From Agrobacterium tumefaciens (GTDB lineage: Bacteria; Pseudomonadota; Alphaproteobacteria; Rhizobiales; Rhizobiaceae), in NCBI RefSeq assembly GCF_005221325.1, contig NZ_CP039890.1, positions 186,001 to 250,000 of the forward strand: 64,000 nt of DNA, in the 5' to 3' direction. The position numbers and the translations under genes were made by a program. Below the pieces are notes generated by a model. The model had not been told where the DNA came from. It did no database searches and saw only the letters and a list, made by a program, of their open reading frames with translations. Shown here piece after piece: positions 7,215 through 36,580 of this stretch (position 1 is the stretch's first letter; every line of letters begins with the position of its first letter).

Positions 7215-7235
7215 AAATCGGATGTCCTACAGTGG

Positions 7236-7253
7236 AACTGCAGATCTGCAGTT
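7236..7253. promoter_or_regulatory. tra-box-like perfect 18-bp palindrome, first of a pair
   Basis: AACTGCAGATCTGCAGTT is an exact inverted repeat. It shares the TGCAGATCTGCA core with the TraR operators (tra boxes) of Ti-type plasmids. It lies about 165 bases upstream of the decayed traI copy and 22 bases after the lipocalin gene stop. Confidence 0.65.
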
Positions 7254-7325
7254 GAAACACCTGCACGCAACGCGCTCGGCTTTCCCGGATCGACACTATG
7301 ACGTCCCTCCAGAGATAGAATCACG

Positions 7326-7343
7326 CGCTGCAGATCTGCAGAT
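7326..7343. promoter_or_regulatory. tra-box-like palindrome, second of a pair
   Basis: CGCTGCAGATCTGCAGAT contains the 14-bp palindrome CTGCAGATCTGCAG. The distance to the downstream ATG (about 60 bases) matches that of the box in front of the intact traI at 22438. The intervening sequence is also recognisably related, so this is the paralogous promoter. Confidence 0.7.
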
Positions 7344-7401
7344 TGCGACATCGTTTTTCATATGATCATTCTCCTCACGTTCGAAACGAGCGGAGAGAGA
7401 A

Positions 7402-8091
7402 ATGCGAATCTTGACGGTCCCTCGTGATCAATACGCCTATCAATTATATGAACTGGCACAGATGCATCGACTTCGCGCGACCGGTTTTCGAGACCGCCTC
7501 GAACGGGATGTTACAATCAGCGAGTCGGGCGAGTTTGAGCAACACGACCAGCTGAACCCCACGAACATCCGCGCGGTAGTTGCCTGCGCGCGTCGGCTTC
7601 CCACAGTCAACCGGACTATGTCGGAGCGGACATTCCCGCAGCTTTTAGCGAGCGGCTCACTCAATGCGACCGACAGGATGATCGAGAGTTTTCGCGTCTG
7701 CATCGCGACAAGGTTACCCCCGGGTAGGGGAGGGGGCCCAAGTCCATCTCGCAGCACTCACAGTGTTCGCGTCATCATCGAGTGGTCGATGGCGAATGGC
7801 TACGATGAGATCGGCACGGCAAAAGATCTGTACTTCGAATGCACCCGGGACCGGCCCCGGTGGCCGATAACACCGCGAAGAGAGCCGGTGGAGATCGACA
7901 AAATCTCCAGCACTCTTCCTACCGATCAAGCGAGTTTCGAACAGGTCTGCCCGCGGGGCTATCGTTCGATCGCTTTCGGCAATGGCGTGGACCCTGCCGG
8001 CGCCAAAACTTCCGGAGCAATCCCGCCACGTTTGACCAACCTAAAGGCGCGTCGCAATTCGGCGCGGGCAAGGACGTGCAAAGATGGATGA
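7402..8091 (+). pseudogene. Decayed second copy of the TraI acyl-homoserine-lactone synthase
   Basis: The 229-residue open frame clearly matches the intact TraI at 22512 (MRILTVP, ELAQMHRLR, GSLNAT, IIEWSMANGYD, SFEQV). It differs at sites expected to be essential: W35 is Arg, the second Asp of the D49/D52 pair is Asn, and six codons are missing just before CARRLP. About eleven codons near 7738-7771 are in the wrong frame because a one-base insertion is followed by a one-base loss. The C-terminus is also unrelated and extended. LuxI-family synthases need the altered residues for S-adenosylmethionine binding and catalysis, so the product is probably inactive. It overlaps the next gene by 8 bases and heads an apparent operon. 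Confidence 0.85.
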
Positions 8092-9157
8092 CACGGTAAA
8101 AGACGCTTGGCGACGTGCGCCGAGACTGAATGAGTTTGCCGACTTCTTCGAGAGAACTGCAAGCGGGCTGGAGGGCGCGCCCGACTATGGCGCGCCGATC
8201 GCTTCAGCCGATCTTCTGCAATTTGATCTGGATTGCCTGACATACGCAGACACTCACCGGCGACTGTGGGGCAAGTTTGAGCATCACTATTTTGCCAGCA
8301 TCCCCTTCCGGCTGGAAGAGGAGTGCCGTATTGCAGCTGCGGCATTCCGGTTTTGTTTAGGGGCTTGGGCACTGGAGTGCCGGCCGGCGACATTGTACAC
8401 GCTGGGAGCCGGAGCTGGCAGCCTTTCCCGCTCGCTCGCGAAACTCGGCGACGGCCGCATCAGTACTCTTAACTGCAGTCCGACCGCTGCGAACCGTGTG
8501 TGCTTTTACGAAAAGCGCGGCAGCGAGTACGCGCATTTCTTCGAGGGCCCTTTTTTCGAACTCGATGCTGATCGGATCGCAAGTGATCGGGACCTCAAGC
8601 CATTTCGGCGAGGATTCGATGTACTTATCGAAGACACCACGTTCCAGATGTATGGAAGCGACAGGGATAATCAGACAGAATTTGTCGCCCGCTCGCTCAG
8701 GCCGACAGGGGTGCTGGTGCAGGTGCAGAAGCTCCGGCATCCCGATCCTCTGATCTACGCAGAGCGTGAACGTCAAAAAGACGAGATGTTCAAATCGCTT
8801 TTTTTCTCACAGAGCCAGATTTCGGAAAAGAAACGTGAAATCCTCAACACCATGTTGGATTTCCAGGTCGATATGGCGACGACCGTTGCGGCACTTGGCC
8901 TGTCTTTTCGCTACAGCGTGGTGACCTGGAACAGTGGCAATTTTTACACGATCGTCTCGTCGAACTCTCGACGATCCATGATTGAATACGTTTCGTTGCT
9001 GTTGAGCCCTGCAATACCCGCTGACTTCTCTAACGGGCGACTGCCGCTGACGATTATTGACGACGCCAACGAGCCGCTCCCCACAAACTGGAAATGGCGC
9101 CCTCCTTGGTCAGTAAAGCCGGTCGTTGCTCCATTGCCTGGACCGCGCGGAGATTGA
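8084..9157 (+). CDS. Class I SAM-dependent methyltransferase-like protein
   Basis: A 357-residue protein. A glycine-rich nucleotide motif, LGAGAG at residues 107-112, follows a hydrophobic beta strand (ATLYT). A motif-IV-like strand FDVLIEDTTFQMY (residues 178-190) and a post-motif RPTGVLVQVQKL follow in the expected order for a Rossmann methyltransferase. The N-terminal 100 residues are helical and do not resemble a domain I can name. The C-terminal part after residue 255 is also unassigned. There is no signal peptide or membrane segment. The ATG overlaps the end of the decayed traI. The next gene starts 5 bases after its stop, so it is the central gene of the operon. The substrate is unknown. 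Confidence 0.65.
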   Translation: MDDTVKDAWRRAPRLNEFADFFERTASGLEGAPDYGAPIASADLLQFDLDCLTYADTHRRLWGKFEHHYFASIPFRLEEECRIAAAAFRFCLGAWALECRPATLYTLGAGAGSLSRSLAKLGDGRISTLNCSPTAANRVCFYEKRGSEYAHFFEGPFFELDADRIASDRDLKPFRRGFDVLIEDTTFQMYGSDRDNQTEFVARSLRPTGVLVQVQKLRHPDPLIYAERERQKDEMFKSLFFSQSQISEKKREILNTMLDFQVDMATTVAALGLSFRYSVVTWNSGNFYTIVSSNSRRSMIEYVSLLLSPAIPADFSNGRLPLTIIDDANEPLPTNWKWRPPWSVKPVVAPLPGPRGD

Positions 9158-9161
9158 ACTC

Positions 9162-10556
9162 ATGAGTGGCAGTTTCGGAGAACCTTGCTTTTCCGCCTCG
9201 CAAATCAGACAGGCGCTGACCCTTCTGATGCCCAAACTCCAGAAATTCTGGCAACGTCCGCTCCTGGATTATGCACATGCGGTATATGACGATGTCCACC
9301 GGGGACACTGCTCTGTGCGTAACGATGCGATTGGGCGTTTGCAGATGCTGGTCCGCAGTGTGGCAATTCGCGCAGGTGCTGATGAGGACCAAGCGCTGGA
9401 TGCGGCCAGGCAGATATCAGAGGTGCCCGTATTACAAAGCGGACCGCATAGTTTCCTGATTGTGGACCCGGAGGCGTTCTACACGCATCTGTTCAGCGCA
9501 TTGGGCTTGAGTTCTCACAAACGCCGGTGGTACCTTTACTTTGGCTGTTCGACCGTCAAGTTTACGGAGAGCCCCGGAAAGGGGCCAGGGTGGCTGGATG
9601 CCGGTGGTGATCTCATCAATGTCTTTGGCTTGTCCAAGCGGCGCATGGGATCAACCAACCTTTGCGGCCGCAACGGGCCATACCAATTCGAGCTCTCACC
9701 CACCACCGCAACGGCTCCAAACCCATACGCCGCATTGCTGAGAACCGAGCTGCCCGACGCCACGTTCCCGACGGCGGCCGACGCGATCATCGCTGCCAAT
9801 CAGGCTCTCTGGAAGAAGTCATTTCCGCTGTCACTGCAGTTACTACAGTTCAACGATGTGGATGTGGGAGACCTCGTTGCCGATCACTTCGAAGACCCGG
9901 ACTCATGGCTATCGAGACGTTTCACGGGTGATGGTCAGGCTGCGGAGAGAATGCTGTCGATAATTGACGCACTGAACGAGGGCCCGTGGGCAGGTTGGAT
10001 CAGGCGAACAACCGATTTTTTCTGGGGACTTGTAGACGGACGGATTGTGCCGCTTCACCTCGATTGCGGTGTCCTGACTGGTTCAACTTCGGCACCCTTC
10101 AGTATTCCGCTCACCCCTGAGCATCTTGCAAGGTCGTTGCGCCAGCGCCAGTTGGTTCCGAATTTGCTGACGATGGCGCTCGTCACATCAATCCTCCCGG
10201 GCATTCGATTGCTCGGTGGTAGTCGGCAGACTGTCTACCACCCGCTGATGCGATACGTCGTTGCTGCCTCGCTCGACGCAAACCACGACCGAGCGCTTTT
10301 GACTGCAATGCGTGAGGACAGCCACGCTAGCATGTGGGGCCATCGCGTTCTTCGTCCAGCAAACGCCTCTCCGCTTCAAGAAACGGAAGAGGTCGGACAT
10401 TGGTTGGCCGTCGCCGCGGCATATGGTGAGCAGCCACTGGAAGTGGCGGCAGGCGATCTTGGTTTCTTCACCGCCGATCCTATTTGGCGGGAGATGTATG
10501 GCCATCTCACAAGCCAAAGGATTACCACTGCATCACCGGAGTGGCGGTGGGCCTAG
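9162..10556 (+). CDS. Unrecognised 464-residue protein of the tra-box-linked operon
   Basis: I do not recognise this family. The start at 9162 (GGAGATTGAACTCATG) is preferred over an in-frame ATG at 9126 inside the methyltransferase gene. The protein is soluble, with no signal peptide or clear membrane helix. Notable stretches are GPHSFLIVDPEAFYTHLFSALGL, a WYLYFGCSTVKF strand, NLCGRNGPYQFEL and a long helical centre (FPLSLQLLQF). Near the C-terminus HASMWGHRVL and GHWLAVAAAYGEQPLEVA look conserved in character. It could be an enzyme or a scaffold acting with the methyltransferase, since the two genes are separated by only 4 bases. No catalytic motif can be assigned. Confidence 0.6.
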   Translation: MSGSFGEPCFSASQIRQALTLLMPKLQKFWQRPLLDYAHAVYDDVHRGHCSVRNDAIGRLQMLVRSVAIRAGADEDQALDAARQISEVPVLQSGPHSFLIVDPEAFYTHLFSALGLSSHKRRWYLYFGCSTVKFTESPGKGPGWLDAGGDLINVFGLSKRRMGSTNLCGRNGPYQFELSPTTATAPNPYAALLRTELPDATFPTAADAIIAANQALWKKSFPLSLQLLQFNDVDVGDLVADHFEDPDSWLSRRFTGDGQAAERMLSIIDALNEGPWAGWIRRTTDFFWGLVDGRIVPLHLDCGVLTGSTSAPFSIPLTPEHLARSLRQRQLVPNLLTMALVTSILPGIRLLGGSRQTVYHPLMRYVVAASLDANHDRALLTAMREDSHASMWGHRVLRPANASPLQETEEVGHWLAVAAAYGEQPLEVAAGDLGFFTADPIWREMYGHLTSQRITTASPEWRWA

Positions 10557-10581
10557 GCAAGATTCGAACGGAGGAACCCCG

Positions 10582-11100
10582 ATGGAAACATCCAGTTGGC
10601 AGATCCGCACAATCTCGCCAGGGGAAGTGGACGTGTTCCGCCAGATTCGACTGGAAGCATTGCAAAGCGAACCTGGTGCCTTCGCGAGCGTCTATGAGGA
10701 TTGGGTAGGGCTCTCGGATGCGGAATGGCGTGAGCGGATGAATATTCCTGTTTTCGTAGCATTCGCCGAAAGACGTCCTGTCGGATTGATGGCGCTAAAG
10801 CAATTGCACCAACCCAAGATGATCCACCGAGCAACGATTACGATGGTGTACGTAAACCAGCGCTTTCGCTCTTCCGGTCTTGCAAACGCACTATTGGACA
10901 CGACCATTAGATACGCTCAGCAACACGGGATGAGGCAGATCGAGCTGGGAGTGCGAGCCAACCGTGCAGGGGCGATACGATTCTACAAACGCGCCGGTTT
11001 CAGAGAGATCGGGACTGTCCCACAGGGATACGTCGATGATGGACTTGAATTTGATGAAATCCTCATGGCCAAGCGACTAGACGCGAAGACTTGCCTCTAG
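10582..11100 (+). CDS. GNAT-family N-acetyltransferase
   Basis: A 172-residue GNAT protein. The N-terminal IRTISPGEVDVFRQIRLEAL segment, the beta-4 strand TITMVYVNQRF, the acetyl-CoA loop RFRSSGLANALL and the later IELGVRANRAGAIRFYKRAGF (motif B) occur in the standard order. The start at 10582 has a GAGGAA ribosome-binding sequence. It lies 25 bases after the 464-residue protein on the same strand, and is likely the last gene of the operon. GNAT enzymes acylate amines on small molecules, antibiotics or proteins. Here it could modify the product of the methyltransferase pair, which is inference from position only. Confidence 0.8.
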   Translation: METSSWQIRTISPGEVDVFRQIRLEALQSEPGAFASVYEDWVGLSDAEWRERMNIPVFVAFAERRPVGLMALKQLHQPKMIHRATITMVYVNQRFRSSGLANALLDTTIRYAQQHGMRQIELGVRANRAGAIRFYKRAGFREIGTVPQGYVDDGLEFDEILMAKRLDAKTCL

Positions 11101-13057: not shown

Positions 13058-13449
13058 CTTGACTGTATCTTGTGCACGAACGCCGGATACGGCCTGACCA
13101 CACTCAAGCTGTTAGGGAGCTCGGATCATGGCTGATTCCGACAATAGCAGAACTATGCCTTCTTTCGCGAGGGCAGATTTCAGCTCAGGTTCTCCATCTC
13201 ATTTCCAGACCATTCCCATTGCGGCCGATCCACCGTCACGGAAGATTGCGCCTATCCAACCAAATAGGGCAGGGGACCGAAACGGGAAGGCCGTAGCCCT
13301 CTAAATTCGAGCACCGTCACATTTATCCGGCGGGGTCAGAGCGTCCCGTCGTGTTTCCGATTCAACCATCTGTCTGCTGAACCAAGCTGCAGCCTTTTCG
13401 CAGCATGGGTCCCCGGCCGTCCAAATTCCAACGACAAAAAGGGAACTCG
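13058..13449. other. Upstream region of the peptide-transport operon, no gene recognised
   Basis: Roughly 390 bases. A possible forward promoter (TTGACT at 13059) occurs next to the XRE operator. A forward open frame from 13072 has no convincing protein character. The region ends with the ribosome-binding sequence AAGGGAA in front of the binding-protein gene. Confidence 0.4.
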
Positions 13450-15054
13450 ATGATCAATTTCACCAAAACAATTCGGCCAAGCACCATCGCCACAGCCGTT
13501 CTATCAATTGCGCTCCTCACCCAGCCCTCCACGCCAGCGAGTGCCCAGACGAAGTCCGACTTGCGCATCGCAACATCCTACAAGCTGATGACGCTCGACC
13601 CACATTATGCGAACCTTAACGAAAACACATCGCTGCTGTCGAATATCTACGAGCGACTGGTTTACCAAGACGAAAAGCTCGCGTTAAAGCCCAGTCTTGC
13701 GGTTTCATGGTCGATGATCTCCGACAATCGCTGGGAGTTCAAGCTGCGTGACGGCGTCAAGTTTCATGACGGTTCGCCGTTTACGGCGGACGATGTCGTC
13801 TATTCCATCGAGCGTATCAGGAACTTCCTGCAATCACCCAGCGGCGGATACCGTTCCTATGTAACAGATATCAAGTCCGCCACGGCACCGGATCCGTTGA
13901 CGGTCCTCTTCGAAACGGATGGGCCAGTCCCCAATTTTCCTCTTTTGATGTCCTCCGTCTTCATCATGCACAAGCCGGGGGAGGGGTTTCAGACAACGGA
14001 AGAACTCAATTCCGGGAGGGCGTCCGTAGGTACCGGCCCTTACAAGCTGGACGGCTGGAGTTCGGGCGAGACCCTGCGACTGATACGAAACGATGACTAC
14101 TGGGGCAGCCGTCCCGCATGGCCCACGGTCACCTTCAGGGTCATGGAAAGTCCTGCAGCCCGTGTCGCTGCTTTGTCTGCCGGTGATGTGGACGTGGCTG
14201 ACTCGGTCCCGGCAAGGGATGTCAGTTCCCTGAAACAGCGCGGCGCCAGCATCGCCAGCATCAGTGCGGCTCGCATCAATTTTCTGCAGTTCGACGTCGA
14301 GAAGGAGAAGGTGTCAGGCGTAACTGACAAATCCGGCGCCCCTATCCCCAACCCGTTTCGAGACATAAGGGTAAGAAAGGCCCTGGCGCTTGCTACAGAT
14401 CGCGATGTGATCGCAGAGAAGATCCTCTCGGGTTACGGTACTGCCGCGTCACAGGTGTTTCCCGAAGGCTTGCCTGGAACCTCCCCCAATCTGAAGGCAG
14501 AATCGCCCGACTATGACGCCGCCAAAGCGCTGCTTTCAAAGGCGGGTTACTCTGAAGGCTTCATAATCATTCTAGCTGGCCCTGCCGGCCGCTACCCCGG
14601 AGACAGCGACAGTCTTCAGGCGGTGGCACAGAGCTGGGCGCGTATCGGCGTTTCTGTCCAGCCCCAAGCATCACCGTTTTCGGTGTTCAACACCAAACGC
14701 GCCGCCGGCGAATACGCCGCGTGGTACGGTGGGACCTCTGGTGAATCTGTGGACGTCATCCTGCGAGCCTTGCTGGCTTCTCCTGATAAGGAGCGCGGCA
14801 CCGGTGCGCTCAATTTCGGGCATTATCGCAACTCATCCTTTGATACACTTCTTGCAAAGGCAGAGAGCATCGAAGAGGGTAAAGAGCGCGATGCTGCGCT
14901 TGCAGCGGCGACTGAACTTGCTCTCAAAGACCAGCCGATCATACCGCTCTATCACTTCCATCATATCGTCGGCTACGGCCCGAAAGTTGGATCATACGTG
15001 ATGCACCCACGCGGGTGGACAACTGCCATGCAGACCATCGCAGCGACGGAGTAA
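13450..15054 (+). CDS. Periplasmic peptide-binding protein of an ABC importer (SBP family 5)
   Basis: A 534-residue DppA/OppA-type binding protein. A signal peptide (IATAVLSIALLTQPSTPASA, cleaved before QTKSD) is followed by the family pattern: MTLDPHYANLNEN, LKPSLAVSW, EFKLRDGVKFHDGSPFTADDVVYSIERI and, later, GTGPYKLDGWSSGETLRLIRNDDYWG. Start 13450 has AGGGAA upstream. It would deliver an oligopeptide or a related ligand such as an opine or amino-acid conjugate to the two permeases encoded directly downstream. The stop is 4 bases before the first permease gene. The peptidase and guanidino-hydrolase genes downstream suggest a peptide or arginine-like cargo, which is inference. Confidence 0.9.
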   Translation: MINFTKTIRPSTIATAVLSIALLTQPSTPASAQTKSDLRIATSYKLMTLDPHYANLNENTSLLSNIYERLVYQDEKLALKPSLAVSWSMISDNRWEFKLRDGVKFHDGSPFTADDVVYSIERIRNFLQSPSGGYRSYVTDIKSATAPDPLTVLFETDGPVPNFPLLMSSVFIMHKPGEGFQTTEELNSGRASVGTGPYKLDGWSSGETLRLIRNDDYWGSRPAWPTVTFRVMESPAARVAALSAGDVDVADSVPARDVSSLKQRGASIASISAARINFLQFDVEKEKVSGVTDKSGAPIPNPFRDIRVRKALALATDRDVIAEKILSGYGTAASQVFPEGLPGTSPNLKAESPDYDAAKALLSKAGYSEGFIIILAGPAGRYPGDSDSLQAVAQSWARIGVSVQPQASPFSVFNTKRAAGEYAAWYGGTSGESVDVILRALLASPDKERGTGALNFGHYRNSSFDTLLAKAESIEEGKERDAALAAATELALKDQPIIPLYHFHHIVGYGPKVGSYVMHPRGWTTAMQTIAATE

Positions 15055-15058
15055 GCTG

Positions 15059-16036
15059 ATGGGTCTGATCTTCGCCGTTTCGGCAAGGCTCTCACAGGCC
15101 GTGCTTCTCCTCCTCGCCATGTCGCTGATCGGCTTCATCGGCATCCACAGCGTTGGTAATCCAGTTTTCAACGTGGTCAATATTGAAACTGCCACCCCTG
15201 AGGATATCAGGCGTGCGACGGCTGCGCTGGGGCTCGACCTTCCGATATGGCAACAATATGGATTGTTTCTGAAAAATGTCGTCAGCGGCAATTTCGGCAC
15301 CTCCTATATCTACCACCAACCCGCATTTAATCTTGTTCTAGGCAAGCTGCCGGCGACGTTGGAGCTTGCATGTGCGGCAATGCTTCTGTCGGCCATCACC
15401 GGCGTCGGCCTCGGTCTCGTTGCCGGCAGAAGAAAGGGAACGGAGCTCGATCGGGCAGTCCTCAACGGCAGCGTCTTTGCTCTCAGCGTTCCCTCGTTCT
15501 GGCTCAGCATGATGTTGATCCTGACGGGTGCGGTCCTGACCGGCTGGTTCCCGTCGGGCGGCCGAGGGACGACGGCAAGTTTTGCGGGAAACGAATGGAG
15601 TTTTCTGACCGCAGATGGATTGCGGCACATGATCCTCCCGATGCTGGCACTCGCCATTCCGAACATCGCGCTGATTGCCCGACTGACGAGATCAGGAACG
15701 ATCGAGATAGAACAGCAGGAGTTCACGCGTTTTTGCAGGGCACGAGGCCTCTCACCAAGGCGGATACTGTTTGCTCACACCCTGCCGAACATCAGCGTGC
15801 CCCTTGTCACGATCATCGGCATGCAATTTGGCGGAATGCTCGCCTTTGCCGTCGTGGTTGAATCGATCTTTGCCTGGCCGGGGATTGGCAAGCTGCTGAT
15901 CGATTCCATCCAGTTACTTGACCGGCCCGTCGTCATGGCGAGCCTGACCTTCACGGCCGTGAGCTTCGTAGTGTTGAACGCGCTCGTCGATCTCTATTAC
16001 GCGCTCGTCGACCCACGTGTGCGCCTGTCGTCATAA
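15059..16036 (+). CDS. Peptide ABC transporter permease, DppB type
   Basis: A 325-residue inner-membrane permease with six predicted helices. The N-terminal helix (AVLLLLAMSLIGFIGIHS) is followed by a periplasmic loop with the DppB-type pattern RATAALGLDLPIWQQYGLFL. The EAA loop region is QQEFTRFCRARGLSPRRILFAHTLPN, which contacts the ATPase. The end (ALVDLYYALVDPRVRLSS) is standard for the family. It lies 4 bases after the binding-protein gene and 13 bases before the second permease. It forms the channel with the DppC-type partner. Confidence 0.9.
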   Translation: MGLIFAVSARLSQAVLLLLAMSLIGFIGIHSVGNPVFNVVNIETATPEDIRRATAALGLDLPIWQQYGLFLKNVVSGNFGTSYIYHQPAFNLVLGKLPATLELACAAMLLSAITGVGLGLVAGRRKGTELDRAVLNGSVFALSVPSFWLSMMLILTGAVLTGWFPSGGRGTTASFAGNEWSFLTADGLRHMILPMLALAIPNIALIARLTRSGTIEIEQQEFTRFCRARGLSPRRILFAHTLPNISVPLVTIIGMQFGGMLAFAVVVESIFAWPGIGKLLIDSIQLLDRPVVMASLTFTAVSFVVLNALVDLYYALVDPRVRLSS

Positions 16037-16049
16037 GGAGGAATATATC

Positions 16050-16949
16050 ATGAAACCGCTTATTCTCCGGGCGCTCAGAATGCGCACCCACACGTCCGAA
16101 CACCGCACACTCCCTAATGCATCGGCTCACCTGTCGACAATTGTTCTGTGCTGCTTCGTTCTGGCAGCGCTCGCAGCACCACTAATTGCATTACAGAACC
16201 CCTATGACCCGCTCCAGATTTTCGGGTGGGAGGCGTCGTCGGCGCCGGGCACCGCCGGCAGCGGAGGCTACATTTACCTCCTCGGCACCGATGGACTGGG
16301 ACGAGATATTTTCAGCACCATTCTCTATGGGCTGCGCATCAGTCTGGTCGTCTCGCTTACAAGCTCGGCTATCGCTGCACTCATCGGTCTGACGGCGGGG
16401 GTAAGCGCTGCGTATTTCGGGCGCTGGGTCGATGTCATGATCATGCGGATCGTTGACCTGCAGCTCAGCCTTCCTACAATTCTCGTTGCGCTGATTGCCA
16501 TCGTCACGCTTGGACCGGGCGTGGACCGGATCATTCTTGCGCTGGTCATCGCGCAATGGGCAAGCTACGCGCGGCTGGTGCGGGGCGTCGCCCTCAGTGA
16601 GACGCAAAAGCCATACATGGACGCAGCACGCCTGAAGCGTCTGCCGACGCACAGGGTCATATTCCGGCACCTGTTACCAAACAGTATCGCTCCGGCAGTC
16701 AGTCTAATTCCGATTGAAGTCGGTCATGCGGTGGCACTTGAAGCAACATTGTCGTTCCTCGGCCTTGGTGTTCCCCTGGACAAACCGTCGCTCGGCTCGA
16801 TGGTCGCGAACGGATTTCAGTACCTTCTGACTGGCCAGTACTGGATCAGCCTGTTTCCCGGCCTTGCACTGTTCTGCCTGATCGCCGCCATCAACTTTAC
16901 CGGCGAGGGAATTCGCCTGCGCCTCGACCCCAGGAGCAAGCCACGATGA
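16050..16949 (+). CDS. Peptide ABC transporter permease, DppC type
   Basis: A 299-residue permease, start 16050 with a strong AAGGAGGAA ribosome-binding site. DppC hallmarks are visible: the N-terminal helix (STIVLCCFVLAALAAPLIA), then PYDPLQIFGW, LLGTDGLGRDIFSTILYGLRISLVVSL, and the EAA loop (KPYMDAARLKRLPTHRVIFRHLLPNSIAPAV). The C-terminus (INFTGEGIRLRLDPR) is also typical. It overlaps the following ATPase gene (ATGA at 16946-16949), indicating translational coupling. It pairs with the DppB-type permease to make the membrane channel. Confidence 0.9.
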   Translation: MKPLILRALRMRTHTSEHRTLPNASAHLSTIVLCCFVLAALAAPLIALQNPYDPLQIFGWEASSAPGTAGSGGYIYLLGTDGLGRDIFSTILYGLRISLVVSLTSSAIAALIGLTAGVSAAYFGRWVDVMIMRIVDLQLSLPTILVALIAIVTLGPGVDRIILALVIAQWASYARLVRGVALSETQKPYMDAARLKRLPTHRVIFRHLLPNSIAPAVSLIPIEVGHAVALEATLSFLGLGVPLDKPSLGSMVANGFQYLLTGQYWISLFPGLALFCLIAAINFTGEGIRLRLDPRSKPR

Positions 16950-18661
16950 ACAGCTCGGCACCAGCATCCACGACACTTGTAACGGACATTAAAACCGTGC
17001 CGCTTCTTGAAATCAGCAATCTGAGCCTCCGCCATCTGTCAAAGTCTGGATCTTCGAAAATCCTGGAAGATGTCAGCTTTACGCTCAGCCGCGGCGAGAT
17101 CCTGGGAATCATCGGCGAGTCGGGTGCCGGAAAATCAACGATTGGAAACGCGATCCTTGGGCTGCTACCTCCTGAAATCGAGCAGGTGTCCGGGACAATC
17201 GTCATCGAAGGGAAACCCCTCGATCCACTCGACAGACAGAGCGACCTGGCGCGGCGTCGGCGGGTTTCGGCGGTATTTCAGGACCACACCGCTTCCCTCG
17301 ATCCGCTGATGAGCGTCGGTGCCCAGATCACCGAGACGGTTCGAGCCCATAACGCGGACCTCACCATGGGTGATGCCCGCATGCGTTCGCTGGACCTTCT
17401 CGGCCGGGTTGGCATTCCCGACCCGGAGCGTCGCTATGGTCACTTTCCGCACCAGTTTTCCGGTGGGCAGCGACAGCGGGCGGTGATCGCCATGGCCCTG
17501 GCCGGATCGCCAGATTTCATTATCGCGGATGAACCGACCTCTGCACTGGATGCAACCGTGCAAAAGCAAATTCTGACACTGTTGCGCACTCTCGTTAATG
17601 AAACGGGGGTTTCAGTCATTCTTGTCACCCATGACATGGGTGTCGTCGCGGAAGTGACTGATCGCGTACTGGTCATGCGCAAGGGAAAGGTCGTTGAGGA
17701 AAACGACACCGACAGTGTGATCGACAAACCTGCCGAGGACTATACTCGTGATCTTCTCGCCGCGGTTCCCCGGTTACTTCTGAACACCCCGGATACTGGC
17801 GGGACGAGCCACAACGGTCAACGGGGGGAACAAGCAGGTCCCGCTTCAAGGGATGCTTCCAATCCATCTCTTGTGGTCGAAGGCATTGGAAAGACTTTCG
17901 TTGCAAGGGGGCTGTCCTCGTTGATCGACAGAGGGCGTGGCTCTTCACGATACGCCTTGAGCGATATCAGCCTGACGCTGCTACGCGGCGAGATCACCGG
18001 TGTAGTGGGGGAAAGTGGTAGCGGAAAAACGACCTTCGGCCGGATCATTGCGGGGCTGGAAACGGCATCGACAGGAACGATGCTGCTGGAGGGCCGTCCC
18101 TACGACGTGACACAATCGGGGCAGCGCAATGGCCTGCTCGGACAGGTTCAGATGATTTTTCAGGATCCAGCTGTTTCGTTAAACCCAACGATGCGCATAG
18201 GCGAAACCTTGCGCGAAAGCCTTCACTTCTGCGCAGGTGCCAGAGACGACAGCAAGACGCTCTTACTCGACGCCATGATGGAACGGCTTGGGCTTTCGCT
18301 GGGCCTGCTGACCCGGTATCCGCATCAGCTCTCCGGTGGGCAGAAACAGCGCGTTTGCATCGCAAGGGCTCTTCTGGCGCGTCCGCAAATCATCGTCGCT
18401 GACGAGCCGACCTCGGCACTTGATGTCTCGGTGCAGGCCCAGATCATCGAACTGCTCAGGGAGACCGTTCAAAGCCAGAACCTTTCGATGCTGTTTATCT
18501 CGCACGATCTGGCGGTCGTTCAACAGCTCTGCCGATCGGTTTTCATCTTGAGGGACGGCAAGATCGAGGACAGCGGCCCTTGTGACGACGTCTTCTCGAA
18601 TTCGCGAAATCCATACACGCGGAGTCTCATTGACGCACGTCCACAAAGATTCACGCACTGA
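16946..18661 (+). CDS. Fused peptide ABC transporter ATPase, DppD-DppF type
   Basis: A 571-residue protein with two complete ATPase halves. The first has Walker A GESGAGKST, signature FSGGQRQRAVIA and Walker B FIIADEPTSALD. The second, starting near residue 300, has Walker A GESGSGKTT, signature LSGGQKQRVCIA and Walker B IIVADEPTSALD. Each half ends with a His switch (LVTHDMG, FISHDLA). A single fused ATPase commonly replaces separate DppD and DppF subunits in alphaproteobacteria. It completes a four-gene importer with the genes upstream. The CapA-like gene follows about 110 bases later. Confidence 0.92.
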   Translation: MNSSAPASTTLVTDIKTVPLLEISNLSLRHLSKSGSSKILEDVSFTLSRGEILGIIGESGAGKSTIGNAILGLLPPEIEQVSGTIVIEGKPLDPLDRQSDLARRRRVSAVFQDHTASLDPLMSVGAQITETVRAHNADLTMGDARMRSLDLLGRVGIPDPERRYGHFPHQFSGGQRQRAVIAMALAGSPDFIIADEPTSALDATVQKQILTLLRTLVNETGVSVILVTHDMGVVAEVTDRVLVMRKGKVVEENDTDSVIDKPAEDYTRDLLAAVPRLLLNTPDTGGTSHNGQRGEQAGPASRDASNPSLVVEGIGKTFVARGLSSLIDRGRGSSRYALSDISLTLLRGEITGVVGESGSGKTTFGRIIAGLETASTGTMLLEGRPYDVTQSGQRNGLLGQVQMIFQDPAVSLNPTMRIGETLRESLHFCAGARDDSKTLLLDAMMERLGLSLGLLTRYPHQLSGGQKQRVCIARALLARPQIIVADEPTSALDVSVQAQIIELLRETVQSQNLSMLFISHDLAVVQQLCRSVFILRDGKIEDSGPCDDVFSNSRNPYTRSLIDARPQRFTH

Positions 18662-18774
18662 GCATCTCCGCGGAACACGCCGTTCCACTCCCGGCACAGC
18701 AGCTCCACAAGCGCCGTTGTTGCGGTTGTCAACCAATACGCCGTCCGATGGGCGGTCAACACAGGCAAAAGCGT

Positions 18775-20007
18775 ATGACAGGACGATTTACCTTGGCCGT
18801 GACCGGCCAGTCTCTCATCAAGCATGACATTCGGGATATCGACGCCGCGGAATTCAGGGCGGTCCAGAATATCCTTCGAAAAGCAGATCTTTCTTTTACA
18901 AATTTTGAGGGCACCATACTTGGAGATCATGGCGGATGGCCACTGAAAGGTTCGTTTTTCGGATGTAGCCGACCAATCGTTCTCGATGCTCTGGCCGAGA
19001 CGGGTTTCGGCGCACTGTCGCTATCCAACAACCACGCGTTTGACCTAGGTCCGTCAGGGGTTCTGGCAACGTTGGACGAAGTGGAACGACGTCGGATGCT
19101 GCATGCAGGGATCGGACGGGATCACCGGCACGCAACCCAAGCAGGCAGGGGAGTGGTTGGCACAAACCGCATAGCGATGGTTGCCATGGATGGGGGGCCA
19201 GGGCCTGATCTCATGTATGCAGCTGACGGCGACGAACATCGCCCCGCGCGTCCCGGCATCAACCGTCTTAAACTTTCTCAGCTCATTGAGGTGGACGATC
19301 GCGCCTTTGAAGAGCTGAGCGCGATCCGGGACAAGGTCGGATATACTGCAATCGATCTTTCCAATGACAGTCAACCGAACGACCCGCCATTCGTGGATCC
19401 CATTGACGAACTGGCGCTCGGCCGGACAATCTTCAAGCGCGCAGGTCGATTTGGGCGCAACGTGCGCATCGACGACCGCGACATGGAGCGAAACCTCCAG
19501 GAAATCGCGTCAGCCGCGAGCGAGGGATACCTCGTCGTCGCCTATCTGCATCATCATCACTGGGCGTCCGACTGGTACAAGGTTCCTGAGTGGGTTGGCT
19601 CCATCGCACGTCGCTGTATTGACGCAGGGGCCGCAATGTTCCTGAGCCACGGCGCGCCGGTGCTTCAGCCACTGGAGATTTATAACGGACGGCCGATTTT
19701 CTACAGCCTCGGCAATTTCATATTCCATGTTCCTTCCAAATCAACCTGGCATTCACCGGAAGTCTGGGAGAGTGTGATTGGTGTGTGCAGCTTCGAGGCC
19801 GACAACCGACTGGTAGAGATCGAATTCCATCCCGTTGTCATCGGTGGCGAGGAGGGTTTGAGCCATTCAAGACTGGAGGAGCGACTGGCGCCCCATATTG
19901 CGACCGACGGTAGAGCGAACCGAATTCTCGCGCGGTTTCAGGCGCAGTCGGCCGAGCTGGGGGCACAAATCCACATAGAAGACAACATCGGCATTCTTCG
20001 GCTCTGA
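18775..20007 (+). CDS. CapA-family metallophosphoesterase-like protein
   Basis: A 410-residue protein of the CapA/PgsA family (calcineurin-like phosphoesterase fold). The metal-binding motifs are DLSFTNFEGTIL, LSNNHAFDLGPSGV, YLHHHHWASDWYKVP and MFLSHGAPVLQPLEIY, ending with the family signature FYSLGNFIF. Unlike classical CapA it has no N-terminal membrane anchor. The start at 18775 (MTGRFTLAVTGQSLIKHDI) is chosen because this strand begins the fold; an in-frame ATG at 18748 adds only nine polar residues. CapA proteins act in poly-gamma-glutamate synthesis or transport. Here, placed between a peptide importer and a peptidase, a role in degrading or processing a gamma-linked substrate is possible. 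Confidence 0.8.
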   Translation: MTGRFTLAVTGQSLIKHDIRDIDAAEFRAVQNILRKADLSFTNFEGTILGDHGGWPLKGSFFGCSRPIVLDALAETGFGALSLSNNHAFDLGPSGVLATLDEVERRRMLHAGIGRDHRHATQAGRGVVGTNRIAMVAMDGGPGPDLMYAADGDEHRPARPGINRLKLSQLIEVDDRAFEELSAIRDKVGYTAIDLSNDSQPNDPPFVDPIDELALGRTIFKRAGRFGRNVRIDDRDMERNLQEIASAASEGYLVVAYLHHHHWASDWYKVPEWVGSIARRCIDAGAAMFLSHGAPVLQPLEIYNGRPIFYSLGNFIFHVPSKSTWHSPEVWESVIGVCSFEADNRLVEIEFHPVVIGGEEGLSHSRLEERLAPHIATDGRANRILARFQAQSAELGAQIHIEDNIGILRL

Positions 20008-20123: not shown

Positions 20124-21419
20124 ATGGAAACGACGGCAAGAAACGATACCGGGTTACGTGACGAGCTTCTCGAAAGGTTCTTCCGATATGTCGGCATCGA
20201 AAGTCAGAGCAATGTGGCAGCGGCCGAATTGCCCTCGACGCCGGGACAACTGAAACTTGCCTTGTTGCTGGCACAGGAACTTCAGGAGCTCGGCATTGAA
20301 GACGTACTTGTCGACGAAAATGCAATCGTCACGGCGGTAAGGCGCGGTTCAAATCCGAATGCCCCGCGCATCGGCTTTATTGCCCACCTCGATACGGTCG
20401 ATGTTGGACTATCCGCGAATATCAAGCCGCAGATCAAGCGATTTGAAGGGCGCGATTTATGCATGAACGAGGACCGGCACATCTGGCTGCGGGTGGCTGA
20501 CCATCCGGAAATAGAATCCTGGAGGGGAGGAGACGTCATCCTGAGCGACGGAACAAGTGTACTTGGCGCCGACAACAAAGCGGCAATCACTGTGATCATG
20601 ACGCTGCTCGCCCGATTTGAAGATGACACGCCTACCGGTGATATTGCGGTTGCCTTCGTGCCGGACGAAGAGATCGGCTTGCGGGGAGCAAAAGCCCTCG
20701 ATCTTGCCCGTTTCCCCTGCGATTTCGCCTATACGATCGATTGCTGCGAGGAGGGCGAGGTGGTGGTGGAAAACTTCAATGCGGCATCTGCGGAGATTAT
20801 TTTCACGGGCGTCAGCGCCCATCCGATGTCGGCCAAGGGCGTCCTCGTAAATCCTCTTTTGATGGCGATTGATTTCATCTCCCATTTCGATCGTAGGGAT
20901 ACACCTGAACACACCGTGGGCAGGGAAGGGTATTTCTGGTTCAGGGATCTCAGCGCCAGCGATAGTGAGGCGCGGCTAAAAGTCATGATCCGCGACTTCG
21001 AGCGGAACAGCTTCGAAGAGCGCAAGAAGCGAATTGGCGAAGTGGCGACACTTGTTGCCGCACAATACCCGACAGGCGCAGTTCGCAGCTCCGTTTTGGA
21101 CACATATGACAATATCGGCGATCATCTTGCCGCCGATTCCCGCGCGGCTGACCTGCTGTTCAGCGCTCTTGACGAGCTCGGCATAAAAAAGAAGATCGTC
21201 CCGATGCGGGGCGGGACTGATGGTGCAGTGTTGTCCGCTCGCGGCATCCCGACGCCGAACTTTTTCACGGGCGCCTATAACTTCCACTCGCGCTTCGAAT
21301 TCCTTCCTGTCTCCGCATTCGTAAAATCCTACGAGACAGCCCGGACAATCTGCAAACTGGCGGCACAGGGCGGCATCAACGTGCGGCGCTCCGCTGCAAA
21401 ATTTCTGGAAGCGGACTGA
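20124..21419 (+). CDS. M20-family peptidase, PepT-like
   Basis: A 431-residue zinc peptidase. The metal ligands and catalytic residues are in the expected places: FIAHLDTVDVG (first zinc His and catalytic Asp), SVLGADNKAAI (bridging Asp), VPDEEIG (catalytic Glu pair) and a late IPTPNFFTGAYNFHSRFEFLPV (final His). The TGAYNFHS ending is characteristic of peptidase T, which releases the N-terminal residue of tripeptides in the cytoplasm. The length is close to known PepT (about 410). It follows the CapA-like gene by 116 bases and precedes the CtlX-like gene by 4 bases. It probably hydrolyses the imported peptide. Confidence 0.85.
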   Translation: METTARNDTGLRDELLERFFRYVGIESQSNVAAAELPSTPGQLKLALLLAQELQELGIEDVLVDENAIVTAVRRGSNPNAPRIGFIAHLDTVDVGLSANIKPQIKRFEGRDLCMNEDRHIWLRVADHPEIESWRGGDVILSDGTSVLGADNKAAITVIMTLLARFEDDTPTGDIAVAFVPDEEIGLRGAKALDLARFPCDFAYTIDCCEEGEVVVENFNAASAEIIFTGVSAHPMSAKGVLVNPLLMAIDFISHFDRRDTPEHTVGREGYFWFRDLSASDSEARLKVMIRDFERNSFEERKKRIGEVATLVAAQYPTGAVRSSVLDTYDNIGDHLAADSRAADLLFSALDELGIKKKIVPMRGGTDGAVLSARGIPTPNFFTGAYNFHSRFEFLPVSAFVKSYETARTICKLAAQGGINVRRSAAKFLEAD

Positions 21420-21423
21420 ACCC

Positions 21424-22347
21424 ATGCGATATTCTGCCCAAGCACCGGCCTCAGTCGTGATGATCCGGCCTCATAATTTTACGGTTAATACCGAGACGGC
21501 TGATGACAACAGTTTTCAAGCCGCGGGCATCGGTGTCTCGGACATCACACAAATGGCTTATGCCGAGATAACCAACGCAGCCAAAACGCTCCGACATCAC
21601 GGTGTGACCGTCCATATGTTTGACGATGAGGGGACGACGACACCTGACTCGGTCTTTCCCAACAACTGGTTCTCGACACATGCCGGCGGGCTTGTTGCGA
21701 TTTATCCCATGCGGGCAAAAAATCGCAGAAAAGAGCGACGGGTCGATGTTATCGAAATGCTGAAATCGGAATACCGGGTGCAGCAGGTTATCGACTACTC
21801 CGGGCTGGAACCTGATGGACTTTTTCTCGAAGGAACGGGTGCGATGGTCCTCGACCACGTTGACAGGGTCGCATACGCCGCCCGCTCGGATCGCACAAAT
21901 CCTGTTGCGCTCGAGCGGTTCGCCACACAATTCGGCTTTGAGCCGATGGTGTTTGATGCATGCGATGCGCAGGGAATGCCCGTCTACCATACAAATGTAT
22001 TGATGTGCATCGGAACCGATTTTGCCATGATCGGGAGCGGTATGATACGCGACACCTCCCGTCGTGAAGAGATTCTGGCCCGCTTGCATAGGTCAGGGCG
22101 GGAGGTGATTGAACTGCGCGACGATCAGATTGGCAAATTTGCCGGCAATGCACTGGAACTTGGGGGGAATAGTGGGCGCTTTCTGGCCATGTCTACGACG
22201 GCTGTGGCATCGCTTGAACCTCACCAGCGAGAAGCGATCGAAGACTGCGTACGAATTGTTGCGCTTGATATACCCTCTATTGAGATGGCCGGAGGGTCCG
22301 TGCGTTGCACCCTGGCCGGCATTCACCTGCTCCCCCGCAAAACTTAG
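21424..22347 (+). CDS. CtlX-like guanidino/ureido hydrolase (amidinotransferase superfamily)
   Basis: A 307-residue protein of the arginine deiminase/DDAH superfamily. Recognised features are VVMIRPHNFTVN at the start, the substrate-Asp motif PDSVFPNNWFSTH near residue 75, FLEGTGAMVLDHVDRVAYAARS, MPVYHTNVLMCIG with the catalytic His, and GGSVRCTLAGIHL near residue 296 with the catalytic Cys. The FLEGTG and VYHTNV motifs are those of CtlX (citrulline-utilisation hydrolase) proteins. The reaction would cleave a ureido or guanidino side chain, giving ornithine and ammonia from a citrulline- or arginine-like compound. It is the last gene of the import-and-degrade operon. The next gene is traI, about 165 bases downstream. 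Confidence 0.8.
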   Translation: MRYSAQAPASVVMIRPHNFTVNTETADDNSFQAAGIGVSDITQMAYAEITNAAKTLRHHGVTVHMFDDEGTTTPDSVFPNNWFSTHAGGLVAIYPMRAKNRRKERRVDVIEMLKSEYRVQQVIDYSGLEPDGLFLEGTGAMVLDHVDRVAYAARSDRTNPVALERFATQFGFEPMVFDACDAQGMPVYHTNVLMCIGTDFAMIGSGMIRDTSRREEILARLHRSGREVIELRDDQIGKFAGNALELGGNSGRFLAMSTTAVASLEPHQREAIEDCVRIVALDIPSIEMAGGSVRCTLAGIHLLPRKT

Positions 22348-22435: not shown

Positions 22436-22453
22436 CACTGCAGATCTGCAGAT
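22436..22453. promoter_or_regulatory. tra box of the traI-trb operon
   Basis: CACTGCAGATCTGCAGAT holds a 14-bp exact palindrome (CTGCAGATCTGCAG). It lies 58 bases upstream of the traI start codon, at the position used by TraR with its AHL in Ti-type plasmids. The core matches the known box, but the outermost palindromic bases are C/G where the textbook box has GTGCAG...CTGCAC. Confidence 0.8.
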
Positions 22454-22511: not shown

Positions 22512-23150
22512 ATGCGGATCCTGACCGTTCCCCCTGATCAACACGCCCATCACAAAGATGAACTGGCGCAGATGCACCGACTTCGCGAAATGGTCTTCCG
22601 AGGTCGCCTAGAATGGGATGTCACAGTCACCGAGACAGGCGAATTTGACGAGTACGACCGGTTCGACCCCACCTATGTCCTTGCGGTGACAGACTATGGA
22701 CGTGTGATCGGATGCGCGCGCCTTCTGCCCGCACAAGGCCCGACCATGCTGAAACGCACATTTCCGCGACTTCTGGCGGATGGCTCGCTCAACGCGACCA
22801 ATGCGATGATCGAGAGTTCCCGCTTCTGCGTCGATACGACATTACCCGCAGGTAGGGAAGGGAGCCAACTCCACCTTGCAACATTGACCATGTTCGCCGG
22901 GATCATCGAATGGTCGATGGCGAATGGCTACGACAAGATCGTTACCGCCACCGATCTACGTTTCGAGCGTATCTTGAACCGAGCGGGATGGCCGATGGCG
23001 CGGTTGGGTGAACCCGTTCCGATTGGCAATACCGTCGCCATCGCCGGCACGCTTCCAGCGGACCAGGAGAGCTTCGAACAGGTTCGCCCTTCGAACTATC
23101 GATCCGTTCTCTCTTGTGCCGATGATCACCCGGAGAGGAGCGCGGCGTGA
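22512..23150 (+). CDS. traI: TraI, acyl-homoserine-lactone synthase
   Basis: A 212-residue LuxI-family enzyme that makes the AHL signal (3-oxo-octanoyl type in Ti plasmids) from S-adenosylmethionine and acyl carrier protein. The invariant residues are present: R25, F29, W35 (REMVFRGRLEWDV), D49, D52 (DEYDRFDP), R70 (CARLLP) and the ESSRFCVD strand. The gene starts 58 bases after a tra box with a GGAGAAAG ribosome-binding site. It overlaps trbB by 4 bases, the standard head of the quorum-controlled trb operon. A decayed paralogue lies at 7402. Confidence 0.95.
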   Translation: MRILTVPPDQHAHHKDELAQMHRLREMVFRGRLEWDVTVTETGEFDEYDRFDPTYVLAVTDYGRVIGCARLLPAQGPTMLKRTFPRLLADGSLNATNAMIESSRFCVDTTLPAGREGSQLHLATLTMFAGIIEWSMANGYDKIVTATDLRFERILNRAGWPMARLGEPVPIGNTVAIAGTLPADQESFEQVRPSNYRSVLSCADDHPERSAA

Positions 23151-35684: not shown

Positions 35685-35875
35685 GCAGACCCGGTGGCGC
35701 GATACAGAGGAATGAGACCCACCAGTGGACATCTAGAGAATAGGAACCCAAATCGGCGCTAGCACAGTGCAGATCGGAGAGAGACTAACCACCTCAGCCA
35801 GCGAGTTCAGACACAGCACTAATATTGGAGTCTACGAATGACCTGTCCCAACTGATTCCTAAAGCGGGGTATATC

Positions 35876-36580
35876 ATGCACTCTTGGCTGGACAAGCTGA
35901 CCGATATCAGCGCGCTGCAGGGCAGCGACAGCGTGCTTCAGCACGCCCTCGAAAATCTGACCAAGGACGCTGGCTTTGAGGGCTATGCGTACCTTCACCT
36001 GCAGCCTGGCCATATTCTCGCTGTCACGAATTATCATCCAGAGTGGCGGTCTATTTATTTTAAGCAAAAGTTCACCACGATCGACCCTGTCGTGAAACGC
36101 GCAAGGACTCTGAGACAGGCTTTCGTCTGGAGCGGTGATGAGGACAGCCCCCGCGTGACAAAGGCAGAAAGGTTGTTTTATGCGCGTGCCGCAGAGTTCG
36201 ACATCCGCTCCGGCGTAACCATTCCAGTAAGGGCAGCCAACGGTTCTATGTCGATGTTCACGATGGCTTCTGCAAAGCCGACCCTTAACCTGGGCCGCGA
36301 TATTGATGTCGTGGCAGCCGCAGCCGTTGTCGGACAACTTCATGCACGGATGTGCCTTCTTCCGCTCACACCCACTGTACAACACCCAGCTTGGCTCGAT
36401 CCCAAAGAGGCGGCCTATCTAAAATGGATCGCCGTTGGAAAAACCATGGAAGAGGCGGCTAACTTGGAAGGAGTAAAATACAACTCAGTCAAGAGCAAGC
36501 TCCAAGAGACCAGGAAGCGCCTCGGGGTCCACACGATGTCTCACCTGGTCGCTTTGGCAATCCGCGCGCATCTTATTTGA
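35876..36580 (+). CDS. traR: TraR, LuxR-type quorum-sensing activator
   Basis: A 234-residue protein, the same length as TraR of Ti plasmids. The AHL-binding domain keeps the contact residues in YAYLHLQPGHILAVTNYHPEWRSIYF, DPVVKRARTL, FVWSG and SGVTIPVRAANGSMSMFTMAS. The C-terminal helix-turn-helix is EAAYLKWIAVGKTMEEAANLEGVKYNSVKSKL. ATG 35876 (MHSWLDKLTD) fits the family start; an upstream ATG at 35825 would add an untypical extension. With its AHL it should dimerise on the tra boxes at 22436 and probably at 7236 and 7326. No traM antiactivator is recognised nearby. Confidence 0.93.
   Translation: MHSWLDKLTDISALQGSDSVLQHALENLTKDAGFEGYAYLHLQPGHILAVTNYHPEWRSIYFKQKFTTIDPVVKRARTLRQAFVWSGDEDSPRVTKAERLFYARAAEFDIRSGVTIPVRAANGSMSMFTMASAKPTLNLGRDIDVVAAAAVVGQLHARMCLLPLTPTVQHPAWLDPKEAAYLKWIAVGKTMEEAANLEGVKYNSVKSKLQETRKRLGVHTMSHLVALAIRAHLI

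What the first reader, a model, noticed from the sequence alone, without database searches (positions are those of the whole stretch)
7215..11100. Unrecognised methyltransferase-X-GNAT operon behind twin tra boxes and a dead traI copy
Seen: two tra-box-like palindromes, a decayed AHL-synthase gene and then three tightly packed genes (methyltransferase-like, 464-residue protein of no known family, GNAT), with 8-base overlap, 4-base and 25-base gaps. Known: TraR activates operons from such boxes on Ti-type plasmids. Inference: a small-molecule-modifying pathway that came under quorum control by traI promoter duplication. No described system of this gene order comes to mind.
Basis: partly seen in the sequence, partly recalled or inferred. 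Interest (0 to 1): 0.8.

Follow-up and report, generated by a model that had tools for sequence, protein, structure and literature searches.

The report
Quorum-linked small-molecule operon on rhizobial plasmids
A three-gene set that probably makes a small amino-acid-like molecule is widespread on the transferable plasmids of plant-associated bacteria, often beside a cell-to-cell signalling gene; in this Agrobacterium lineage the signal-responsive start of a broken signal-synthase gene stands there instead.

The parts
7236..7253 (.). distal 18-bp perfect palindrome (tra-box-like), found in the window only among six aligned copies
7327..7343 (.). proximal tra box of the traI-remnant promoter, 0 of 17 sites variable in six copies
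   Evidence: same offset as the box before intact traI (22438-22451)
7402..8091 (+). decayed traI (AHL synthase) ORF, 229 aa
   Evidence: its pAt15955 counterpart gave no detectable AHL (PMC7856919 section 14)
8084..9157 (+). MT: 357-aa class I methyltransferase-fold enzyme of unknown reaction
9162..10556 (+). X: 464-aa protein with BshC / class I aminoacyl-tRNA-synthetase-like predicted fold
10582..11100 (+). GNAT N-acetyltransferase, 172 aa
   Evidence: PF00583, 5e-16
13405..18661 (+). possibly linked module: peptide-type ABC importer (binding protein, two permeases, fused ATPase)
   Evidence: relatives of the binding protein in the fetched stretch of 18 of 36 type-1 loci
18748..20007 (+). 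linked module: CapA/PGA_cap family protein
   Evidence: close relative in 14 of 14 genomes with a close X
20124..21419 (+). possibly linked: PepT-like tripeptide aminopeptidase
   Evidence: NF009920 618 bits, cut-off 293; near X in only 3 of 80 fetched stretches
21424..22347 (+). possibly linked: CtlX, citrulline/guanidino hydrolase family
   Evidence: NF046062 405 bits, cut-off 334; near X in only 3 of 80 fetched stretches
22512..23150 (+). intact traI, overlapping trbB, with box 22438-22451
35825..36580 (+). TraR, the candidate activator at the boxes
   Evidence: NF010444 404 bits, cut-off 250

Best explanation
MT-X-GNAT is a plasmid-borne operon that makes a small peptide-like amino-acid derivative, and the family is widely under LuxR/AHL-type control. 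X, with a BshC/class I synthetase-like fold, most likely activates an amino acid or joins it by an amide bond to a substrate prepared by the MT-fold enzyme; the GNAT acetylates the product or protects the producer (inferred from folds). In the window's lineage a luxR unit was probably replaced by a traI promoter segment, so that the trio would be switched on by TraR-AHL together with conjugation (inferred; box conservation and traI decay are shown). The product, or a related compound, is taken up again by a co-occurring module marked by CapA, in the window with an ABC importer, PepT and CtlX (inferred from co-occurrence).
Against: No sequence-level link of X to BshC: no PF10079 hit, hhalign against three BshC gives probability 0.1. 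MT lacks an acidic residue at the position recalled as ribose-binding in 25 of 25 rows, so its cofactor is open. GNAT was not detected next to X in 15 of 36 type-1 and in 36 of 36 type-2 loci; no luxR within 900 bases in 11 of 36; PepT and CtlX near X in only 3 of 80 fetched stretches each, CapA in 37. L048 shows no CapA in its fetched stretch. 7 of 21 CapA-bearing genomes have no close X; in 4 of 14 genomes the two are on different contigs; the thresholds for 'close' were set after seeing the lists, and at the search thresholds overlap is 17 of 20. An invariant 17-base box is not extreme: at 20 percent variable sites chance gives about 2 percent. No product or expression data were found.
Confidence: 0.5

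Rival explanations
1. The operon is biosynthetic, but the traI remnant and boxes are only relics and TraR does not drive it in this lineage.
For: The distal box is in the window alone; the remnant is decaying; an invariant 17-base box could arise by chance at about 2 percent; in the passages and section that I read, the paper on pAt15955 tested the traI copy but not the genes behind it.
Against: Proximal box 0 of 17 variable while about 20 percent of neighbouring sites vary; the trio stays under purifying selection behind it.
Confidence: 0.25
2. MT and X modify an RNA or protein rather than make a free metabolite: MT is CmoA-like (tRNA wobble pathway), X is a synthetase relative, and GNAT acts on the same macromolecule.
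Against: Neighbours include transporters, a peptidase and guanidino enzymes; enterobacterial MT sits beside LysE in the three loci opened; patchy distribution, 20 of 247 family genomes with any X match.
Confidence: 0.15
3. A low-molecular-weight thiol pathway analogous to bacillithiol or mycothiol: X adds cysteine and GNAT acetylates it.
For: BshC fold of X plus a GNAT; the MshC/MshD parallel is recalled, not from a call.
Against: The neighbours seen are quorum, transport and arginine-type genes, and the patchy plasmid distribution is unlike a housekeeping thiol. BshA/BshB-like or MshA/MshB-like genes were not searched for.
Confidence: 0.1

Closest known systems
BshC (bacillithiol cysteine-adding enzyme, PF10079, PDB 4wbd)
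   Different: No profile or profile-profile sequence match, the latter with only three BshC sequences; different gene company
CmoA (PDB 4gek) and CysG/BelI (PDB 9g0k, 9fce)
   Same: MT fold and, for CmoA, weak profile similarity of the C-terminal half
   Different: The position aligned with CmoA Arg199 is K, R, Q or E
TraR/TraI regulon of Ti and pAt15955 plasmids (PMC7856919: abstract, passages and section 14 read)
   Same: Box sequence type and position; intact traI-trb and TraR in the window; traI-At2 of pAt15955 (RS25205) is the gene before MT in L002
   Different: A metabolic trio sits behind the box instead of conjugation genes; the paper calls the place an uncharacterized locus
AZE synthases AzeJ/VioH (PMC11794875: abstract and passages read)
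   Same: MT-fold enzyme in mobile biosynthetic contexts
   Different: Signature motifs PFNxxGN and RxxYYxxC absent from every MT row of A1 and A3

Membership tests
BshC (PF10079) | match to the family profile | tested here: not met
   no hit for X or for the 30 rows of A2 at E 10; none in 39 same-genus genomes with the own genome
BshC (PF10079) | BshC fold | tested here: met
BshC (PF10079) | profile-profile homology to BshC sequences | tested here: inconclusive
   probability 0.1 with both X alignments, but only three BshC sequences
CmoA (carboxy-SAM synthase) | Arg199 that holds the carboxyl group | tested here: not met
   aligned column K 18, R 5, Q 1, E 1 of 25 (alignment; feature from PMC3663124 passages); not an invariant arginine, although 5 rows have R
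AZE synthase | PFNxxGN and RxxYYxxC motifs | tested here: not met
   absent from all 25 rows of A1 and 33 of A3 (motifs from PMC11794875)
functional TraI AHL synthase (remnant) | score above the curated TraI cut-off | tested here: not met
   window 192.7 against 250 bits. Against: the pAt15955 sister scores 265, above the cut-off, yet gave no AHL detectable by the biosensor
TraR regulon | tra box in promoter position | tested here: met
TraR regulon | TraR- and AHL-dependent expression | not testable with these tools
   needs reporter or RNA data

The most novel reading that the evidence does not exclude
A bacterial, self-made counterpart of opines: plasmids encode quorum-timed synthesis of a new class of guanidino or arginine-type peptide by a synthetase-fold ligase, plus its export, re-import and breakdown, so that plasmid carriers share a private nutrient or signal linked to conjugation.
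Probability: 0.22. Interest if true: 0.85.

Novelty: new variant of a known kind. Interest (0 to 1): 0.62.

Why it matters
It ties a widespread biosynthetic module, which my searches did not find described, to quorum sensing and conjugation on symbiotic and Agrobacterium plasmids, and gives a likely fold-level function for a family annotated as hypothetical protein. It also suggests rewiring of one operon from a dedicated LuxR to a traI promoter, leaving a dying synthase gene whose box persists; that would account for the silent second traI of pAt15955. The product can be sought directly.

Tried and rejected
Azetidine-2-carboxylate synthase for MT: rejected, motifs absent. Carboxy-SAM synthase: Arg199 position not kept. 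Searches of X against PDB sequences gave nothing useful: single sequence, profiles. The Streptomyces X-like protein (L011) was tried as a bridge to BshC; no Pfam hit at E 0.1. A BshC search in 398 Pseudomonadota genomes gave 8 sub-cut-off hits, unused. MT in the 398-genome sample: 7 strong hits, all in the family, plus 8 weak ones that look CmoA-like by their matched part; of the 7 short loci, 2 show X beside MT, 2 show AraC and the start of MFS, 3 show AraC, and X would lie beyond their ends. Print searches for a described system; these are listings of the top hits only (10 of 525, 10 of 7,245, 2 of 2, 4 of 4), so absence in print is not proven; in PMC13133039, a survey of Rhizobium quorum systems that sets LuxR solos aside, the word methyltransferase does not occur (passages). 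One search (small E. coli plasmid with LysE) listed 8 of 57 papers, none relevant by title.

Full report
Where it lies. The window appears to be NZ_CP039899.1:186001-250000 (A. tumefaciens, 438,854-bp record): X matches there at 100 percent at the same offset. The window also holds an intact traI overlapping trbB (from 22512) and a TraR (35825-36580), both above their curated cut-offs.

The observation. The two palindromes, the decayed traI and the three packed genes are present as described. I aligned six sister loci (window, L002, L013, L118, L119, L120; L002 and L120 look identical over the aligned stretch, so there are five distinct ones). The proximal box is in all six, at the same offset as before intact traI. 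The distal box is in the window alone. It falls in a short junction between the lipocalin-gene flank, which the best other plasmid matches only to about 7226, and the stretch shared by the sister loci from about 7270.

Decay of traI. Among five remnant copies (10 pairs) dN/dS is 0.48-0.99. For the trio, window against four of those relatives gives MT 0.09-0.14, X 0.19-0.33, GNAT 0.21-0.32. The box has 0 of 17 variable sites, against 12 of 58 between box and ATG and 12 of 60 upstream; at that rate 17 invariant sites arise by chance in about 2 percent of cases (my arithmetic), so this is support, not proof. Remnants against the plasmid's own traI give dS about 1.2-1.3 and dN/dS about 0.2, which fits a long constrained past and recent relaxation, and speaks against a recent local duplication. 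Barton et al. 2021 (PMC7856919; abstract, passages and section 14 read) cloned the pAt15955 sister gene (traI-At2, RS25205, the gene before MT in L002) and detected no AHL; they leave open that it is non-functional or makes a product their biosensor does not see, and call the place an uncharacterized locus.

Distribution. X relatives: 150 of 72,556 plasmid records, 138 covering 80 percent or more of the query; 65 Rhizobium, 43 Sinorhizobium, 17 Agrobacterium, 6 Streptomyces. The three Streptomyces rows listed cover only a third. MT relatives: 198 records, 193 at 80 percent or more, including 25 Escherichia and 2 Salmonella. A genome scan found 98 X relatives and kept the best 80 loci. In my tally of those 80, 78 have MT within 9 kb. 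36 are type 1 (MT and X in one direction), with luxR within 900 bases upstream in 24, traI in 1, neither in 11, and GNAT in 21; in at least L019 and L070 a luxR lies further up. 36 are type 2 (MT away from an AraC-MFS-X group, no GNAT detected). 8 are other. Loci end at most 10 kb from X and some contigs sooner, so neighbour counts are lower limits. At least two members of a conjugation reference set that includes TraR and TraM are matched in 39 of 80.

Regulation. All 32 LuxR proteins upstream of MT that I aligned (27 from the genome loci, 5 from plasmid records) have the TraR residues W57, Y61, D70, P71, W85 and G113 (their role in the AHL pocket is recalled). A palindrome close to TCTACCGAATTCGGTAGA stands at -108 to -175 before MT with 4 or fewer mismatches to its 16-bp core in 20 of 37 MT-X loci. 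Shuffled upstream regions average about 6.4-6.8 mismatches, with minima of 3-5 in 100 shuffles each, so single weak matches mean little; the recurring position is the better sign, and the pattern was chosen from these same loci. AHL-synthase-like genes, all below the TraI cut-offs (two were given slightly short of their ends), stand 2-8 kb from the operon in L027, L032 and L078. Inference: LuxR/AHL control is common in the family, and the window's lineage, where I saw no luxR beside MT in the six copies, exchanged that unit for a traI promoter.

Functional company. In 247 Rhizobiaceae genomes, 14 have a close X (E below 1e-100) and 21 a close CapA (E below 1e-120); all 14 are among the 21 (expected 1.2; hypergeometric 5e-18, kinship ignored). 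These limits were set after seeing the lists. In 10 of the 14 both genes are on one contig, from about 1 to 52 kb apart; in 4 they are on different contigs. 7 of the 21 CapA genomes lack a close X. In the window CapA follows a peptide-type ABC importer and precedes PepT and CtlX. In the 80 loci CapA is seen in 37, the type-1 binding protein in 19, another binding protein in 24, but PepT and CtlX in only 3 each, so their link is weak. In Mesorhizobium L048, arginase, ornithine cyclodeaminase, CtlX, a DDAH-like gene (200 bits, cut-off 450) and a second MT-like gene precede MT-X, with no CapA in the fetched stretch. On enterobacterial plasmids the MT homologue stands beside a LysE-family gene in the three loci opened, where no X is annotated. 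Together these point to an amino-acid-like, perhaps guanidino, compound; this is inference.

Odds. On checking the counts I lowered the best explanation from 0.55 to 0.5 and the novel case from 0.25 to 0.22, because PepT and CtlX are near X in only 3 of 80 fetched stretches each and the box invariance is only moderately unlikely by chance.

Verdict. A real, conserved, quorum-linked operon whose biosynthetic nature is likely and whose product is unknown. The gene order is common rather than unique, the distal box is local, and TraR control in this lineage still needs a test.

Noticed in passing
L008:4297-5689, L009:6977-8566, L117:2007-3536: An MT homologue (35-37 percent identity) is paired with a LysE-family gene on enterobacterial plasmids, often about 5.7 kb; in E. 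coli 29 of 5,426 genomes match, 19 over 80 percent of the pair, with no chromosomal place. It may make and export an amino-acid analogue.
   Followed up: partly
L116:2291-16125 (Streptomyces sp. NBC_01423 plasmid): An X-like protein (35 percent over a third of X) sits in what looks like a biosynthetic cluster with genes annotated or matched as amidinotransferase, ATP-grasp ligase, FemAB-like, decarboxylase-like and TauD-like.
   Followed up: partly
L010:4112-8975 (A. vitis pRvVAR031a): A distant MT (32 percent) lies among genes annotated as adenylate-forming enzyme, ectoine synthase, RidA and MFS.
   Followed up: no
window 18748-20007: The CapA-family protein scores 142 bits with the lasso-peptide epimerase MslH model (cut-off 700), so it may act on a peptide.
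   Followed up: no
L078:5588-20232 (Brucella pseudogrignonensis): A luxI/luxR-type pair stands divergent to MT-X-GNAT, and PepT, CapA and the importer genes follow on the opposite strand.
   Followed up: partly
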